A DNA stretch of 40,807 bases from the NCBI GenBank assembly GCA_027487315.1, contig JAIYDW010000232.1, positions 1-40,807 on the forward strand. Direction: 5' to 3'. This stretch comes from Verrucomicrobiaceae bacterium (lineage in GTDB: Bacteria > Verrucomicrobiota > Verrucomicrobiia > Verrucomicrobiales > Verrucomicrobiaceae). Shown in pieces: positions 18,296 to 24,732 of the stretch. Every line of letters starts with the position of its first letter. The first letter of the stretch is position 1. A program made the position numbers and the translations under genes. The notes below the pieces were generated by a model. The model was not told the DNA's origin. It worked only from the letters and a program-made list of their open reading frames with translations, and made no database searches.

Positions 18296-21200
18296 TTAAT
18301 GCAAGTCACGATTCCCATCCCCACGTCGCGCCACCACCTCCGCGATCATCCCCCGCAGCGCCTTCTGAACCTGATTCCAGCCGTTCACACTTGGGTTAAA
18401 GCTCGTCATCGGACGCAGTTGCCCGTTCTGGTTCGGCACCGTTTGCAGCTTCCTCAGCCACTTCTGTTGGGCAAAAGCCTCTGTCGGTTCCAGTAGAACC
18501 GGCAGGATCTCCGCCTCACCCGCCTGCTGGCGACGACGCGCCTCCCGCATTTCAACCCCATGGATATACTTAGAGGCAAAGAAAGCCGTGCTCAGCAATA
18601 GGATCACAATGTCCGCCTCCTTCATCTCCCGGCGGATCGCGTCATCCCACTCGCTGCCCGCTCGGATCTTTCCGTCGAACCACCACGACACCAACCGCTC
18701 ATTCTTTAGCACGTCCAGATGGGTTTTGAAGCGGTCCCAAACCTTGTAGTTCTCATGCGCATAGCTCACGAAGACCTTCAGCTTCGGCGCACTATTCCGC
18801 CGCGCCTTGGCAGGCTGCACCTGCTCCAATTCCTTTTCCACGGGCAGTTCAGTCACACCCCGGGAAGTCACCACCTGGACGGGTTTACCCTCCGCCTCCA
18901 GTTGCTCCAACTTCCCCACGTTTTCGTATTGCTCCCCCGGCACCGTTAGGTCCAGTTCCTCCCTTCCCCGCAGACCCTCAGGCAGCCCACGATGAATCTC
19001 CTCCATGTTCGAGCGCACCACACCAGCCAGTTCCTGACGCTCTTCCGCCGTGACCCCCAGAATAAAAACGTCCACTCGCGGATTCCGCCGCCGCTCCGCC
19101 ATCACTAGCGCACGCGCATTTCCCCAGCCAAGCACCACCCCGCGCTGCCAGCGGAAATAGTCATCGCTCAGCGGATGCGTCCGCACGATGAACCGGCTCA
19201 TTACCCCAGCGGGCAGCAGTTCATAGAGGTAACGGAAACGCACCTGCGCCCCCTCAATGTGCGCTGCGACGTCGTAATCCTTTGCCTCAGGTTCATCCAG
19301 CGTCAGCAGGCCCGGCAGCAGATAAAGCGGCTTCTTCTTGTATTCACCGGCCAGAAAGCCTAGCTCACGATCTTGCATCAGTTCCAGCAGGAACTCATGC
19401 ACCCGAACGCCATCCCTCTCTTCGGGGTAATCATCAATCGTGGCCCCCCGTTCTTTGTTCATGCCTTCCATGCCCTCCGCCAGCACAGCGGGGAACTCCC
19501 CCTGCCAGAGCTGCCCAGGTTTGTTTTGGAAAGGCTTTCGGTGAATACCCCGCACCAGCCCATAAAGACCGTTCGCCGCCCAGTTCGGATTAAGCACCCG
19601 CGTGTCCCGCAGACGCTCGTCATCGCCATAGTAAAGCGCAACACCCAGTGCATTCAGGTTCTCCGCCAAACTCGTCTGCGCCATCTGTTCTGTCACCCCG
19701 CACTCCACACACACCTGCCGGTAGTCCTCCCAGTTCAGAAAATGCCGCCGCTCCGCCGGATCATCATCCGTCGCCTTTTCATCCAGCTTCTCCTTCACCT
19801 GGAAGTAAGTCAGCGGCCACTCCTGCCGCACTGCGGGCATCTGCTCCAGAACCGCGCAGATCGTCTCCCGCAGCGTATCGATACCGTAGTCTGCCTTGCA
19901 GTCCGTCTCCACAAAGGCGCGAATGTTCGGGAACTCGCGTTGAAGACGACGCTTTTCCACATCATACGGGCCGGGGCTGCACCACTTGTTCAGCACTACA
20001 ATTACGGGTGAGCGTTCCACTTTTCCCCCCTCCTTCCGGCTGCCATAGCGCTCTACATGACTCAGCCAATACTCCGCCTCCTCCATCTGCTGGCCCCCGC
20101 GCCCATCCAGCACCACCACATACAGGCTGCGCTCCGTCAGGAAGAAGCGGTGGGTTTCATGCGTGATCTCCTGTCCTGCAAAGTCCCATACATGTACCTT
20201 CACAGGCTCGCCGCCGGGACATTCCAGCTTCCACGGTCGAATCTCGATTCCTGGGGTCTCTGCCTGCTCCTTTTGATACACCTCCCCACGTAGCGCCCGT
20301 GACACCGAGGTTTTCCCCGCCTCTCCACGACCCACTAGCAGCAGCTTAACCTCATTCAACGGGCGTGTACCGTGTTTCTGACGGGCGAAGTAATAGTCAA
20401 GTATTGCCCTTGGTGGCGCAGGGTTCTTCTTTTCTTTGTCAAGTTCATCCCATCCTGGTCCCAACAAATCAGGCGGCAAATCCAGGATATCGTTTCCGTG
20501 AAGAAAAAGTGCTGTTAGCGCTGTTAGACGAAGGAGTTCTGGTGGGAGGCTCGCCAGCTTATTCTCGCACAAATTTAGCCACGTCACTTTTGACAGTTCA
20601 CCAATCTCAGGCGGTAACTCCGAAAGCAAATTGCGGGAAAAAACAAGTTCTGAAAGCTCGGTCAGTTTACCGATTTCGGATGGAACACTTGTGATGTTGT
20701 TGCCGTAAAAGTTGAGATTCGTTAAACCTCTGAGATCACCGATCCAAGATGGGACCATCACCAATTGGTTGTTTGCGGCAGATAGTCGTTTAAGGCCATT
20801 AAGATTTTTGATTTCAGGTGGAAGGCTGGTGATTTTGTTATTCGAGAAACTGAGCTTTTCGAGGATAACAAACTTCCCGATCTCACGAGGTAGATTCGTG
20901 AGCTGGTTGTTGTCGACACCAAGATCCTTGAGCTTGGAGATCTGGCCCATCTCTGGAGGTAGGTTTGTGAGTTGGTTGTTGTTGAGAACTAGTTCCTTCA
21001 GTTCCGAGAGCTGACCAATCTCGGGCGGCAGATTCGTGAGCTGGTTACTGCTTAGACTCAGCTTCTCCAATGCGGAGAGATCACCGATTTCGGGCGGCAG
21101 GTTCGAGAACTGGTTGCTGTCTAGGCGAAACTCCTTCAGCGACGATAACTCACGTATCTCAGACGGCAGGGTGGTAAGATGGTTGCTACTTAGACTCAGC

Positions 21201-21763
21201 TTCCTCAATAAAGAGAGCCGACAAATCTCAGGCGGCAGATTCGTGAACTGGTTGCTGTCGAGGCGAAGGTCCCTCAACGACGATAACTCACGTATCTCAG
21301 GCGGCAGGGTCGTGAGTTGGTTACTGTCGAGGAAAAGCTCCGTCAGCGACGATAACTCACCTATCTCGGCAGGCAGGGTTGTGAGCTTGTTGTTGTCAAG
21401 GCGAAGCCTCCTTAGCGACGATAGCCGACAAATCTCAGGAGGCAGAGTGGTGAATTGGTTGAGAAGGAGGACAAGTTCTACTAACCCAGAAAGGCTGCCA
21501 ATCTCAGATGGGAGGCTCTCGAGTTCGTTATGATGAAGATATAGTTTTTTCAGCGCAAATAGATGACCAATCTCGGGCGGCACTCGAGTCAAACCTAGGC
21601 CACCAAGGTTAAGCTCCGTCCCTTTTTCACCTTTCCGGCGGCATGCTTCAATTTGCTTCAGTGCCTTTTTATAGGCGGAAACAGCTTTTCGGTTAATCGG
21701 CAGGAGAGACATTCCCACAAAATGGCTGTCCCAGCCAAATTGTCGAACACCGATTCCACACAT
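18296..21763 (-). CDS. LRR-Roc-COR-TIR multidomain protein (Roco-TIR)
   Basis: 1155 residues. Residues 50-440 are 17 leucine-rich repeats of exactly 23 residues (consensus L-x-L-x-x-N-x-L-x-x-LP-x-EI-x-x-L-x-x-L). Then comes a Roc GTPase: P-loop LLVGRGEAGKTS near 474-486, switch II VWDFAGQE, and VVLNKW where the usual NKxD base-recognition Asp is absent. A COR-type region follows to about 880. A TIR domain covers about 993-1145: KVFVSYAHEN, DGKIRAGSEWDDAI and FFASKYIHGVEMREA with Glu1071 at the place of the NADase catalytic Glu. The architecture suggests LRR sensing, GTPase switch and TIR effector. The start is uncertain: 21763 (preceded by TAAGGACGG) or 21712 (MSLLPINRKAVSAYKKAL). It leads the operon with the ATPase and HNH genes. 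Confidence 0.9.
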   Translation of the reverse strand: MCGIGVRQFGWDSHFVGMSLLPINRKAVSAYKKALKQIEACRRKGEKGTELNLGGLGLTRVPPEIGHLFALKKLYLHHNELESLPSEIGSLSGLVELVLLLNQFTTLPPEICRLSSLRRLRLDNNKLTTLPAEIGELSSLTELFLDSNQLTTLPPEIRELSSLRDLRLDSNQFTNLPPEICRLSLLRKLSLSSNHLTTLPSEIRELSSLKEFRLDSNQFSNLPPEIGDLSALEKLSLSSNQLTNLPPEIGQLSELKELVLNNNQLTNLPPEMGQISKLKDLGVDNNQLTNLPREIGKFVILEKLSFSNNKITSLPPEIKNLNGLKRLSAANNQLVMVPSWIGDLRGLTNLNFYGNNITSVPSEIGKLTELSELVFSRNLLSELPPEIGELSKVTWLNLCENKLASLPPELLRLTALTALFLHGNDILDLPPDLLGPGWDELDKEKKNPAPPRAILDYYFARQKHGTRPLNEVKLLLVGRGEAGKTSVSRALRGEVYQKEQAETPGIEIRPWKLECPGGEPVKVHVWDFAGQEITHETHRFFLTERSLYVVVLDGRGGQQMEEAEYWLSHVERYGSRKEGGKVERSPVIVVLNKWCSPGPYDVEKRRLQREFPNIRAFVETDCKADYGIDTLRETICAVLEQMPAVRQEWPLTYFQVKEKLDEKATDDDPAERRHFLNWEDYRQVCVECGVTEQMAQTSLAENLNALGVALYYGDDERLRDTRVLNPNWAANGLYGLVRGIHRKPFQNKPGQLWQGEFPAVLAEGMEGMNKERGATIDDYPEERDGVRVHEFLLELMQDRELGFLAGEYKKKPLYLLPGLLTLDEPEAKDYDVAAHIEGAQVRFRYLYELLPAGVMSRFIVRTHPLSDDYFRWQRGVVLGWGNARALVMAERRRNPRVDVFILGVTAEERQELAGVVRSNMEEIHRGLPEGLRGREELDLTVPGEQYENVGKLEQLEAEGKPVQVVTSRGVTELPVEKELEQVQPAKARRNSAPKLKVFVSYAHENYKVWDRFKTHLDVLKNERLVSWWFDGKIRAGSEWDDAIRREMKEADIVILLLSTAFFASKYIHGVEMREARRRQQAGEAEILPVLLEPTEAFAQQKWLRKLQTVPNQNGQLRPMTSFNPSVNGWNQVQKALRGMIAEVVARRGDGNRDLH

Positions 21764-21936: not shown

Positions 21937-22353
21937 GTGAAATCCAAGGCGGCTCCTGGTCGGTCCCGGCGCACAGTCCGGCACCCCCTCCCCTTGCCTG
22001 AAGGCTCCAATGAAAGCCCCCGCCTCCCCAAGCGCAAACGCCGCACCCCGGACCCCTTCCCCTCCCCCGCCCAAATCATCGCCAAATGCCAGGAAAAGCA
22101 CCATTGCCCCATGGTCGCAGGCCAAATCATAGCCCTCATCACCCTCATCAACGAACGCCAGTGGACCATCGCCGAAACCGCCAACCACTCCCACGTCGGT
22201 CGAATCACCATCTCCGACATCCTCCACGCCAAAACCTGCCCCTCCACAGACACCATCAACGCCCTCGCCGAAACCTTTGGCTTCGACTTCATCCTCTTCA
22301 ACATCTTCGCCTCCATTTGCCTAAGAGCGGAAGTGTCGGAGTACCGACATTGA
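21937..22353 (+). CDS. Xre/Cro-type helix-turn-helix protein
   Basis: 138 residues from GTG 21937; ATG 22111 (residue 59) is an alternative giving only the DNA-binding domain. The segment IIALITLINERQWTIAETAN then RITISDILHAKTCPSTDTIN and ALAETFGFDF follows the Cro/C1 helix pattern (two helices, recognition helix, then the LAxxFGF-type end). The first 45 residues are Arg/Pro-rich and may be disordered or untranslated. It lies divergent from the defence operon and directly upstream of the 21-bp palindromic array, so it could bind either region. Both links are inference. No ligand or dimerisation domain is seen. Confidence 0.65.
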   Translation: MKSKAAPGRSRRTVRHPLPLPEGSNESPRLPKRKRRTPDPFPSPAQIIAKCQEKHHCPMVAGQIIALITLINERQWTIAETANHSHVGRITISDILHAKTCPSTDTINALAETFGFDFILFNIFASICLRAEVSEYRH

Positions 22354-22383
22354 GCCCCCACCACACCGGTGTCAGCCTCCCCC

Positions 22384-22902
22384 ATGACCACCGCCCCCCA
22401 GCCGCCCCCCACCGCCGCTCCCCCTCACCCCACGACGCCCACCACCCCTCCCACAGCGCGTCCCTGTCGTACGACAACCCCATCCTGTCGTTCAGCATTC
22501 TCGCCCCGTCGTACCACATCCCCGCGTTGTCGTACCGCAACACCGTCCTTCGCTTCCACATCCGCCCGTTGTCGTACCGCAACGCCATCCTGTCGTACGA
22601 CATCCCCGCGTTGTCGTACCGCAACGCCGCGCTGCGCTTCCACATCCACCCGCTGTCGTACGACAACCACGTCCTGTCGTACGACATCCCCGCATTGTCG
22701 TACCGCAACGCCGCGCCGTCGTACCACAAAACCCCGCTGCACTCCCACATCCGACCGTTGTCGGACGACAACGACGTCCTGTCGTACCGCAACCCCGCGC
22801 TGTCGTACCACAAAACCGCGCCGCAACCCCACCAACACCTCGCCTTTCACCCCGGAACCCCGCCGCCATCCCACCCCCACCCAACCCAGGAGGCCCCGCT
22901 GA
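22384..22902 (+). CDS. possible Cys/Arg/Thr/Pro heptapeptide-repeat protein
   Basis: A 172-residue frame from ATG 22384 runs through the 21-bp array and stops at TGA 22900-22902, overlapping the next gene's ATG in a TGATG junction, as in translationally coupled pairs. It reads as repeated CRTATPR/CRTTSPR units. Against it: codon third positions in the array are not GC-biased as in real genes here, and the product is very low in complexity. The competing plus frame (LSYRN type) has better third positions but no ATG. Included as a possibility only. Confidence 0.25.
   Translation: MTTAPQPPPTAAPPHPTTPTTPPTARPCRTTTPSCRSAFSPRRTTSPRCRTATPSFASTSARCRTATPSCRTTSPRCRTATPRCASTSTRCRTTTTSCRTTSPHCRTATPRRRTTKPRCTPTSDRCRTTTTSCRTATPRCRTTKPRRNPTNTSPFTPEPRRHPTPTQPRRPR
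22465..22821. repeat. array of 17 contiguous 21-bp units with palindromic core
   Basis: Units start at 22465 and every 21 bp up to 22801 with no insertion or deletion. Consensus TGTCGTACCGCAACGCCGCGC. Four units (starting 22465, 22591, 22654, 22675) begin with TGTCGTACGACA, a perfect 12-bp palindrome; most others keep TGTCGTAC and vary the right half. The period equals two helical turns. Five of six frames stay open: one plus frame reads as heptapeptides of LSYRNAA type, another as CRTATPR type, and a minus frame as ALRYDNA type. Either a binding-site array for the adjacent HTH protein or a heptapeptide-coding repeat is possible. It is not a CRISPR array, as there are no unique spacers. Confidence 0.9.
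22888..22893 (+). promoter_or_regulatory. Shine-Dalgarno AGGAGG for the gene at 22902
   Basis: AGGAGG, then an 8-nt spacer, then ATG 22902. A full-consensus ribosome binding site stands out because nearly all other starts here have none. It decides the start over ATG 23013, which has no such motif. Confidence 0.8.
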
Positions 22903-23714
22903 TGCCGAACTGGAACAGCGGCGTTCTCTGGAACTCCGGAGCCCTTTGGGGGCCCGCCTCACCGCAGCCCCCGCTCAAACAGCACACCCAAACCAAACGC
23001 CATCAACGCACCATGAAACGCCAGCCCTACTACCCACGCCTCCTCGACGCCCAGCCCGAGTGGCACTTCAACTACGCCGACCGCCTCTCCGAACTCGGAG
23101 CCGGCATCGGCCTCCTCCCCGCAGACATCACCGCCAGCGTCAACGACTCCCGCCACCTCGGCTACGCCCTCGGCGTCTGGCTCACCAAAGTCCGCGACTT
23201 CGGCCCCGGCGTCACTGGCGAGCTCGAAACCCTCCGCTACGGCACCGGCACCACCCCCTTCGAGCTCCCCGACTTCGTCGCCCCAACGCCCCCCGCCGGA
23301 CTGACCCCTGTTCTCCCCGGAGCCCTCAACCGCATCTTCAAATACGTCCAAACCATCAAATCCGCCTCCGGCTACACCGAAGGCATCGGCATCCTCATGC
23401 GCATCGTCGGCCAGGAAGACACAATCGAGCACCTCAGCCCCGAGCTCACCCTCAAAGTCGAGCAAGGCCCCACCTGCCAATGCGTCCGCATCCGCTTCAA
23501 AAAATGGGAGCACTACGCCATCGCCCTCTACAGCAAGCGCGGCACCACCGACTGGGAACTCCTCGGCATCGACACCGACTCCCCCTACATCGACGAGCGC
23601 CCCCTCCTCAACCCCACCCAACCCGAACTCCGCAGCTACCGCGCCCGCTTCTGGGACAAAGGCATCGAAACCGGCGACTGGACCGACATCACCACCACCA
23701 CCGTAGCCCCCTAG
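22902..23714 (+). CDS. YYPR-type protein of unknown function with Fn3-like C-terminus
   Basis: 270 residues from ATG 22902 (with AGGAGG); the inner ATG 23013 would give 233. The N-terminus repeats a short motif ([14 protein letters not shown]). Then comes [17 protein letters not shown], a helical domain of about 130 residues with [20 protein letters not shown] and [20 protein letters not shown], and a C-terminal beta part ([20 protein letters not shown], then [12 protein letters not shown] and WTDITTTTV) that looks like a fibronectin-III-like sandwich. I recall similar proteins in Verrucomicrobiota, beginning with a KR-x-YYP motif and annotated hypothetical; this is memory, not a search. No signal peptide. 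A collagen-like gene follows, as if both belong to one surface or tail-like structure (inference). Confidence 0.7.
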
Positions 23715-23997: not shown

Positions 23998-24660
23998 ATG
24001 TTCGACCCCTCCATCCCAGTCGAAAACACCGAGATCGACGCCGCCCAAATGCGCAGTCAACTCAACGGCCTCAAGTCCCTCATCGACGCCATCACCACCC
24101 TAACCAACGCCCAGATCGACGCCACCAACACCCTCCCCCCCGGCAACCCCGCCAACGTCACCCTCACCATCAACGGCAACACCCTCCACTTCACCTTCGA
24201 CATCCCCACCGGCGACCCCGGCCCCCAAGGCGAACAAGGCCCCCAGGGCGAAACCGGCCCCGAAGGCCCTCAAGGCCCCTCCGGCGGCCCCGAAGGCCCG
24301 CCAGGACCCGAGGGCCCCCAAGGCCCACCCTTCGCCAACGCCGTCATCGACGCCACCAACACCCTCCCCCCCAACGACCCCGCCACCGTCGACGTCACCT
24401 TCGACGGCACCAACGTCCACTTCACCTTCAACATCCCCCAAGGCCAAACCGGAGCCGAAGGCCCCACCGGACCCGAAGGCCCCCAAGGCCCTCCCGGCGA
24501 AGTCACCCTTCAACAACTCACCGACGCAATCGCCACCACCGCCCAAAACCCCACCACCGTCTCCCCCCTCATCCTCACCCCCAGCGCCACCTACAACCCC
24601 AACCAACTCCAAGAAACCATCGACAAACTCAACGAACTCCTCACCACCCTCCAACGCTAA
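23998..24660 (+). CDS. collagen-like Gly-X-Y repeat protein
   Basis: 220 residues from ATG 23998. Two blocks of Gly-X-Y triplets ([20 protein letters not shown] onward, about residues 72-111, and [20 protein letters not shown], about 144-163) each follow a matching beta-rich segment: [20 protein letters not shown] with [11 protein letters not shown], and [20 protein letters not shown] with [11 protein letters not shown]. So the gene contains an internal duplication of a (beta unit + collagen) module. The N- and C-terminal parts are helical. Bacterial collagen-like proteins trimerise and are usually exposed or part of phage-tail-like fibres. No signal peptide is seen, which leaves the location open. 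Confidence 0.88.
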
Positions 24661-24666
24661 CCCCGC

Positions 24667-24732
24667 TCAAAGTTCAGCGTTCGACATTCGACATTCGACA
24701 TTCGACATTCGACATTCGACATTCGACATTCT
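24667..24732. repeat. perfect heptamer array (TTCGACA)x7
   Basis: Seven identical consecutive TTCGACA units at 24680-24728, preceded by the diverged AGTTCAGCG. It fills the 80-bp gap between the convergent collagen-like and barrel genes, beginning a few bases after the collagen stop. Perfect identity points to recent expansion. Confidence 0.95.

What the first reader, a model, noticed from the sequence alone, without database searches (positions are those of the whole stretch)
22465..22821. Seventeen exact 21-bp units carrying a 12-bp palindrome next to an HTH gene
The array has perfect 21-bp spacing without indels over 357 bp. Several units contain the perfect palindrome TGTCGTACGACA. A 21-bp step is two helical turns, so all sites would face the same side of DNA, as in iterons or cooperative operator arrays. 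The gene just upstream encodes an Xre-type HTH protein. Alternatively the array encodes heptapeptides, since five frames stay open and indel-free periodicity of 21 also fits frame selection. Either way it is a structured element that standard gene calling would miss.
Basis: partly seen in the sequence, partly recalled or inferred. Interest (0 to 1): 0.82.

Follow-up and report, generated by a model that had tools for sequence, protein, structure and literature searches.

The report
Phased DNA-site array beside matching regulator
Seventeen 21-base repeats lie between a regulator gene and a surface-like gene pair, and the same layout, with a different repeat sequence each time, recurs across Verrucomicrobiota, where the repeats look like a row of DNA docking sites matched to the neighbouring regulator inside a stretch that ribosomes can still read.

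Summary
The array is real: 17 units of exactly 21 bp, 22465-22821, about 63% alike, four with a perfect TGTCGTACGACA. It belongs to a recurrent operon: Xre-type HTH gene, 21-bp array, W-motif/FN3-like gene, usually a collagen-like gene. In 64 of 71 Verrucomicrobiota loci a 21/42/63-bp array lies within 800 bp upstream of that gene; control stretches 1/113 at 21 bp. Unit sequences differ between loci, but they share a dyad-symmetric layout with base covariation (z 5.8), contiguous within-unit conservation, slips of ±1 but never ±3 bp, and, in one group, a motif that follows the adjacent HTH's recognition helix, seen also in loci fetched afterwards. That points to phased operator sites. An ORF (window 22384-22902, 172 aa) also runs through the array and its stop overlaps the next gene's start (TGATG), far above chance elsewhere; its codon-position GC and amino acids show no protein-level constraint. 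Best reading: a regulator with a private array of about 12-17 helically phased operators inside a translated spacer, controlling the downstream genes. Rival: a hypervariable heptad-repeat protein. I found no description in the papers searched. The effect on expression is inferred. About a third of the loci lack an adjacent Xre gene.

The parts
21937..22353 (+). Xre-type helix-turn-helix gene (138 aa), proposed binder of the array
   Evidence: HTH_3 above gathering score. Of 15 homologues with enough downstream DNA, 14 have a 21-bp array 72-368 bp downstream
22384..22902 (+). Open frame (172 aa from ATG; GTG at 22369 also possible) through the whole array; stop TGA 22900-22902 overlaps the next start
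   Evidence: ORF list. In other loci the same relative frame is open 53/64 against 33 and 35, Fisher p 6e-5
22465..22821 (+). Array of 17 units of 21 bp
   Evidence: period-specific association with the downstream gene family
22465..22476 (.). Perfect palindrome TGTCGTACGACA, unit 1
22591..22602 (.). Perfect palindrome TGTCGTACGACA
22654..22665 (.). Perfect palindrome TGTCGTACGACA
22675..22686 (.). Perfect palindrome TGTCGTACGACA
22888..22893 (+). AGGAGG, Shine-Dalgarno-like, before the downstream gene
   Evidence: read in sequence
22900..22904 (+). TGATG stop/start overlap between array ORF and next gene
   Evidence: sequence; T[GA]ATG in 15 of 34 informative loci, 1.9 expected, p 1e-10
22902..23714 (+). 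W-motif gene (270 aa): [18 protein letters not shown]..., helical part, FN3-like C-terminal part
   Evidence: no Pfam family, no significant PHROG match; AF2 mean pLDDT 79; FN3-type PDB matches, best E 1.6e-3
23998..24660 (+). Collagen-like gene ([14 protein letters not shown]..., G-P-Q repeats)
   Evidence: Pfam Collagen 7.5e-8; relatives follow the W-motif gene in many loci

Best explanation
The array is a set of about 17 binding sites for the Xre-type protein encoded just upstream, one dimer per 21-bp unit, so that all dimers sit on one face of the DNA and can bind side by side. The sites lie inside an operon (HTH gene, array, W-motif/FN3 gene, collagen-like gene). They are embedded in an ORF that ribosomes can read through and that ends at the next start codon, so the downstream genes stay translationally coupled. 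Bound protein would block or gate transcription into the surface-like genes without shutting off its own gene. Shown by computation: the recurrent layout, period 21, dyad symmetry with covariation, HTH-motif matching in one group, the open frame and stop/start overlap. Inferred: binding itself, cooperativity, repression or roadblock, and translation of the spacer.
For: 64/71 loci have the array upstream of the gene; 21 bp in 51/71 against 1/113 control stretches; 18, 24, 39 and 45 bp in 0/71. Array consensus units share the purine/pyrimidine layout RRnRRnnYYnYY (information 3.15 vs 2.3-2.5 in column shuffles), with Watson-Crick covariation strongest at one dyad centre, z 5.8; GT and AC mismatches are both depleted, so DNA rather than RNA. 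The covariation holds whatever the reading frame (z 3.3 and 3.9). Within-unit conservation is contiguous (lag 1 z 7.9, lag 3 none, no mod-3 phase). Slips: 14 of +-1, none of +-3 bp. HTH class and motif match: GVSREYxGKIERGKANP with GGTANNNNTACC, GVSRDM/T with GGGGGCG, GVTDQTILN with GGGGTGCTCCC; two new loci each for the first two classes agree. L037 and L038 differ in both HTH and array while the spacer between them is 97% and the downstream gene region 90% identical. The own genome has five arrays with the same motif and one such HTH gene. Promoter-like sites were found upstream of the HTH gene (10/27 loci) but not between HTH and array (0/27).
Against: About a third of loci have no Xre gene next to the array; L075 has a LuxR-type HTH instead. 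Outside the MNWD group HTH and array similarity do not correlate. In the MNWD group the partial Mantel test is only p 0.048, and related loci are not independent. Some HTH relatives lack an array (L174, L177, L180, L184). L039 and L079 have near-identical HTH genes but share only half of the unit. Perfect palindromes occur in 4 of 17 window units. No promoter-like site was found in the window itself. No binding or expression data.
Confidence: 0.52

Rival explanations
1. The array encodes a hypervariable heptad-repeat protein, a real gene between the HTH and W-motif genes. Period 21 is seven codons, and the sequence diversifies as in adhesins or antigens.
For: One frame relative to the next gene is open in 53/64 arrays against 33 and 35. 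TGATG/TAATG overlap far above chance. Several ORFs start with a similar MNAT or MNA N-terminus. The ORF also abuts a different downstream family (L218).
Against: GC by codon position in the array is 0.63/0.69/0.65 against 0.63/0.49/0.83 in the adjacent gene. No third-position excess; heptads of unrelated loci are no more alike than order-shuffled ones (2.99 vs 3.04). Slips of +-1 bp, none of +-3. L069 has stops in all frames. Synonymous share in this frame (0.350) hardly exceeds a reverse frame (0.346).
Confidence: 0.25
2. The array acts at RNA level, as a row of hairpins in the leader of the downstream genes.
For: The array seems to be transcribed within an operon; several units can form stems.
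Against: G-U type pairs are not favoured over A-C (GT 67 vs null 81, AC 64 vs null 71); several dyads have no room for a loop; Rfam finds nothing.
Confidence: 0.06
3. A centromere-like, anchoring or replication site (iteron-like), with the HTH protein as adaptor.
For: Repeat number, phasing and adjacent DNA-binding protein resemble iterons and par sites (own knowledge).
Against: No Rep, ParA/ParM or TubZ-type gene found beside it; up to 19 gene matches per genome; no match to the gene in phage or plasmid records.
Confidence: 0.06
4. A selfish or REP-like dispersed repeat with no function at this place.
For: Decayed or solo arrays of the same motif sit elsewhere in the own genome; array content can be replaced between recent paralogues.
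Against: Position just upstream of one gene family in 64/71 loci and period kept while sequence changes; distinct from the GTAG/CGTC REPs described (PMC3733652).
Confidence: 0.08

Closest known systems
Xre/Cro/C1-type repressors with operator sites
   Same: Single HTH_3-type regulator next to dyad-symmetric sites; higher-order Xre binding to promoter repeats is described for Xre-RES (PMC12204516)
   Different: Around a dozen or more sites in strict 21-bp steps, downstream of the regulator gene and inside an ORF; a private motif per locus
Plasmid iterons
   Same: Tandem direct repeats about two helical turns apart, bound by a protein encoded nearby (own knowledge)
   Different: No initiator gene, chromosomal, multi-copy, upstream of surface-like genes
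parC/tubC centromere arrays
   Same: Arrays of sites for a small DNA-binding adaptor (own knowledge)
   Different: No filament-forming NTPase gene; downstream genes are FN3-like and collagen-like
Translationally coupled overlapping genes (ATGA/TGATG)
   Same: Stop/start overlap of the kind linked to translational coupling (PMC6728339)
   Different: The upstream ORF shows no codon-position signature of a normal protein gene

Membership tests
Xre-type (HTH_3) regulator with operator sites | HTH_3 domain in the regulator | tested here: met
   24.8 bits against cut-off 23
Xre-type (HTH_3) regulator with operator sites | Dyad-symmetric sites near the regulator gene | tested here: met
   Covariation at one dyad centre over the arrays, z 5.8; four perfect 12-bp palindromes in the window
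Xre-type (HTH_3) regulator with operator sites | Regulator binds the sites and changes transcription | not testable with these tools
   Indirect only: recognition-helix class matches motif
Plasmid iteron origin | Replication initiator gene beside the repeats | tested here: not met
   Neighbours are HTH_3, FN3-like and collagen-like proteins
Partition centromere (parC/tubC) | ParM-, ParA- or TubZ-type NTPase in the operon | tested here: not met
   None among the neighbouring proteins of the window scanned with Pfam
Heptapeptide-repeat protein gene | Frame kept open with start and stop | tested here: met
Heptapeptide-repeat protein gene | Protein-level constraint (codon-position composition, residue pattern) | tested here: not met
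Structured RNA array | Covariation with G-U tolerance | tested here: not met

The most novel reading that the evidence does not exclude
Verrucomicrobiota carry a large family of self-contained regulator units, each a small HTH protein with its own rapidly rewritten, 21-bp-phased operator array set inside a sequence-free translated spacer, giving one genome up to a dozen or more mutually orthogonal switches over variant surface-like proteins; HTH and array can be swapped together.
Probability: 0.35. Interest if true: 0.85.

Novelty: new variant of a known kind. Interest (0 to 1): 0.72.

Why it matters
If right, nature has run a long experiment in which protein-DNA specificity is rewritten again and again in one genetic setting, with the cognate site supplied in many copies next to each regulator. 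That gives ready-made pairs for learning HTH recognition rules and for building orthogonal repressors. It would also show an operator array hidden inside an ORF, where gene callers see either nothing or a spurious repeat protein, and it would point to a regulated, multi-copy surface system in a poorly studied phylum.

Tried and rejected
Palindromicity of single 21-mer consensi alone was weak (median p 0.57); the signal appears only on aligned arrays. Viral contigs, phages and plasmids hold no relative. Rfam: nothing. A REP-like origin of the inverted repeat at the HTH 3' end was rejected: one copy in the genome. I first concluded that the array is non-coding, then had to revise when the frame tied to the downstream start proved open and stop-overlapped. 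Literature searches gave no description. A first slip-counting script gave zero events because its costs were set wrongly.

Full report
OBSERVATION. The window holds 17 tandem units of exactly 21 bp at 22465-22821 without an indel. Units are about 63% alike, with 42- and 84-bp registers stronger than 21. Four units contain TGTCGTACGACA. The same-base rate at lag 21 is 0.69 against 0.37-0.41 at lags 20 and 22. Upstream is an HTH_3 gene; downstream is a 270-aa protein without Pfam family or significant PHROG match, then a collagen-like gene.

A RECURRENT UNIT. The downstream protein ([18 protein letters not shown]...) has relatives in 34 of 68 genomes of the family, up to 19 matches per genome, and sparsely elsewhere in the phylum (6 of 388 genomes in an even draw, which includes genomes of the own family). 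In a collection of bacterial and archaeal genomes all 39 hits are labelled as Verrucomicrobiota members. Viral, phage and plasmid collections have none. Of 71 loci with enough upstream DNA, 64 have a 21/42/63-bp array within 800 bp upstream; 21 bp occurs in 51/71 against 1/113 control stretches, and the in-frame neighbours 18, 24, 39 and 45 bp in none. Median array size is 12.5 units. Loci from other families (Chthoniobacteraceae, Spartobacteria) have it too. About two thirds have an Xre-type HTH gene on the same strand before the array; others do not, and one has a LuxR-type gene. A collagen-like gene follows in many.

WHAT IS CONSERVED IN THE ARRAYS. Unit sequences of different loci look unrelated. 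Alignment of 66 array consensi by expectation maximisation gives a shared layout RRnRRnnYYnYY (information 3.15 against 2.3-2.5 in column shuffles). On this alignment, which did not use pairing, Watson-Crick pairs are in excess at one dyad centre (280 vs 220.5, SD 10.3, z 5.8); the next best centre reaches z 3.1, a weaker secondary signal. GT and AC mismatches are depleted alike, which argues for DNA sites rather than RNA stems. Caveat: loci are related to various degrees; without the MNWD group the excess is still 175 vs 138.6, SD 8.6. Conservation within units is contiguous (lag 1 z 7.9), without lag-3 or mod-3 signal, with two half-site peaks (this profile uses the alignment and may be sharpened by it). 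Phase slips are +-1 (14 events, several of them one inherited event in the MNWD group), +-2 (2) and never +-3; larger shifts lie mostly at array edges.

LINK TO THE HTH PROTEIN. In the group whose downstream proteins start MNWD, the recognition-helix class goes with the array motif: GVSREYxGKIERGKANP with GGTANNNNTACC-like units, GVTDQTILN with GGGGTGCTCCC, GVSRDM with GGGGGCG. The partial Mantel test of array on HTH given the downstream protein gives p 0.048, the reverse p 0.47; outside this group there is no HTH-array correlation. A later search by HTH alone brought new loci: L169 and L175 (first class) have 8 and 7 GGTANNNNTACC; L186 and L189 (third class) have GGGGGCG; variants of the first class (L172, L178, L179) have variant motifs. 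Homologues of the window's own HTH were also fetched without using the structural gene: 14 of 15 with enough DNA have an array 72-368 bp downstream (two or more of these are the same loci as before). L037 and L038 share the spacer at 97% and the gene region at 90%, but differ in both HTH and array. L039 and L079 have near-identical HTH genes and share only the half unit CTCRYCC, so coupling is not absolute.

OWN GENOME. Four further arrays with the TGTCGTAC motif exist (C250, C143, C126, C209) but only one such HTH gene. C250 and C143 look like decayed copies. Over 67 units the dyad TGTCGT|ACGACA is 69% paired with mild covariation (z 3.3, best of 42 centres).

THE OPEN FRAME. The frame one base after the W-motif gene's start is open through 53 of 64 arrays, against 33 and 35 for the others (Fisher p 6e-5). 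Where the gene does not itself begin ATGA, T[GA]ATG overlap is found in 15 of 34 against 1.9 expected (p 1e-10). In the window this is ORF 22384-22902, 172 aa, ending in TGATG. Such overlaps are a known means of translational coupling (PMC6728339). Yet GC by codon position in the array (0.63/0.69/0.65) and its flanks lacks the pattern of the adjacent gene (0.63/0.49/0.83), third positions are not freer, and heptads of unrelated loci are not alike. The frame seems to be kept open for passage of ribosomes rather than for its product; a fast-changing repeat protein is not excluded. In L218, L219 and L221 the array ORF abuts a different W-motif/FN3-like family, again with a collagen-like gene in L218.

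STRUCTURE. AF2 of the W-motif protein (21 sequences, mean pLDDT 79, pTM 0.49) gives a disordered N-terminus, helices and a beta sandwich. PDB matches are weak and of fibronectin-III type (best E 1.6e-3). A surface role is inferred only from this and the collagen-like partner.

MECHANISM. Promoter-like sites occur upstream of the HTH gene (10/27) but not between HTH and array (0/27); the window itself shows none. I therefore favour an operon in which bound HTH dimers, one per 21 bp on one face, gate transcription into the downstream genes. Binding, cooperativity, sign and roadblock are inferred.

VERDICT. Ordinary parts in an arrangement that I could not find described: a new variant of the regulator/operator kind, with a dual DNA-site and open-frame constraint. 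Confidence 0.52 for the full statement; higher, by my judgement, for 'array of dyad DNA sites' alone.

Noticed in passing
24680-24731: Perfect 7-bp tandem repeat TTCGACA, 7.4 copies, just after the collagen-like gene.
   Followed up: no
22334-22349: Inverted repeat TGTCGG-AGTA-CCGACA at the 3' end of the HTH gene, single copy in the genome; it resembles the array half-sites.
   Followed up: partly
18296-21763: LRR-Roc-COR-TIR protein gene next to the unit, opposite strand. In the same genome another LRR-Roc-like gene ends just before the C250 array (L161, 799-3744).
   Followed up: no
L161, L167, L159, L160: Other arrays of the same motif in the own genome: two beside apparent remnants of the HTH or W-motif gene, two short ones in intergenic blocks with shared flanks.
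   Followed up: partly
L187, L188, L190-L195: HTH relatives matching only the first part of the query, many in short frames of about 73 aa, in several genomes and without arrays.
   Followed up: no
L218, L219, L221: Same HTH and array layout before a different family of W-motif/FN3-like proteins.
   Followed up: partly
L007/L076 (G055:C7): A locus with high local identity to the window gene (69%) matches in several pieces, has a weak array and no HTH found: it looks decayed.
   Followed up: no
L065, L067-L069: In the MKHQ-type loci 63-bp periods carry one long inverted repeat (ATCCTTT...AAAGGAT type) per three units.
   Followed up: no
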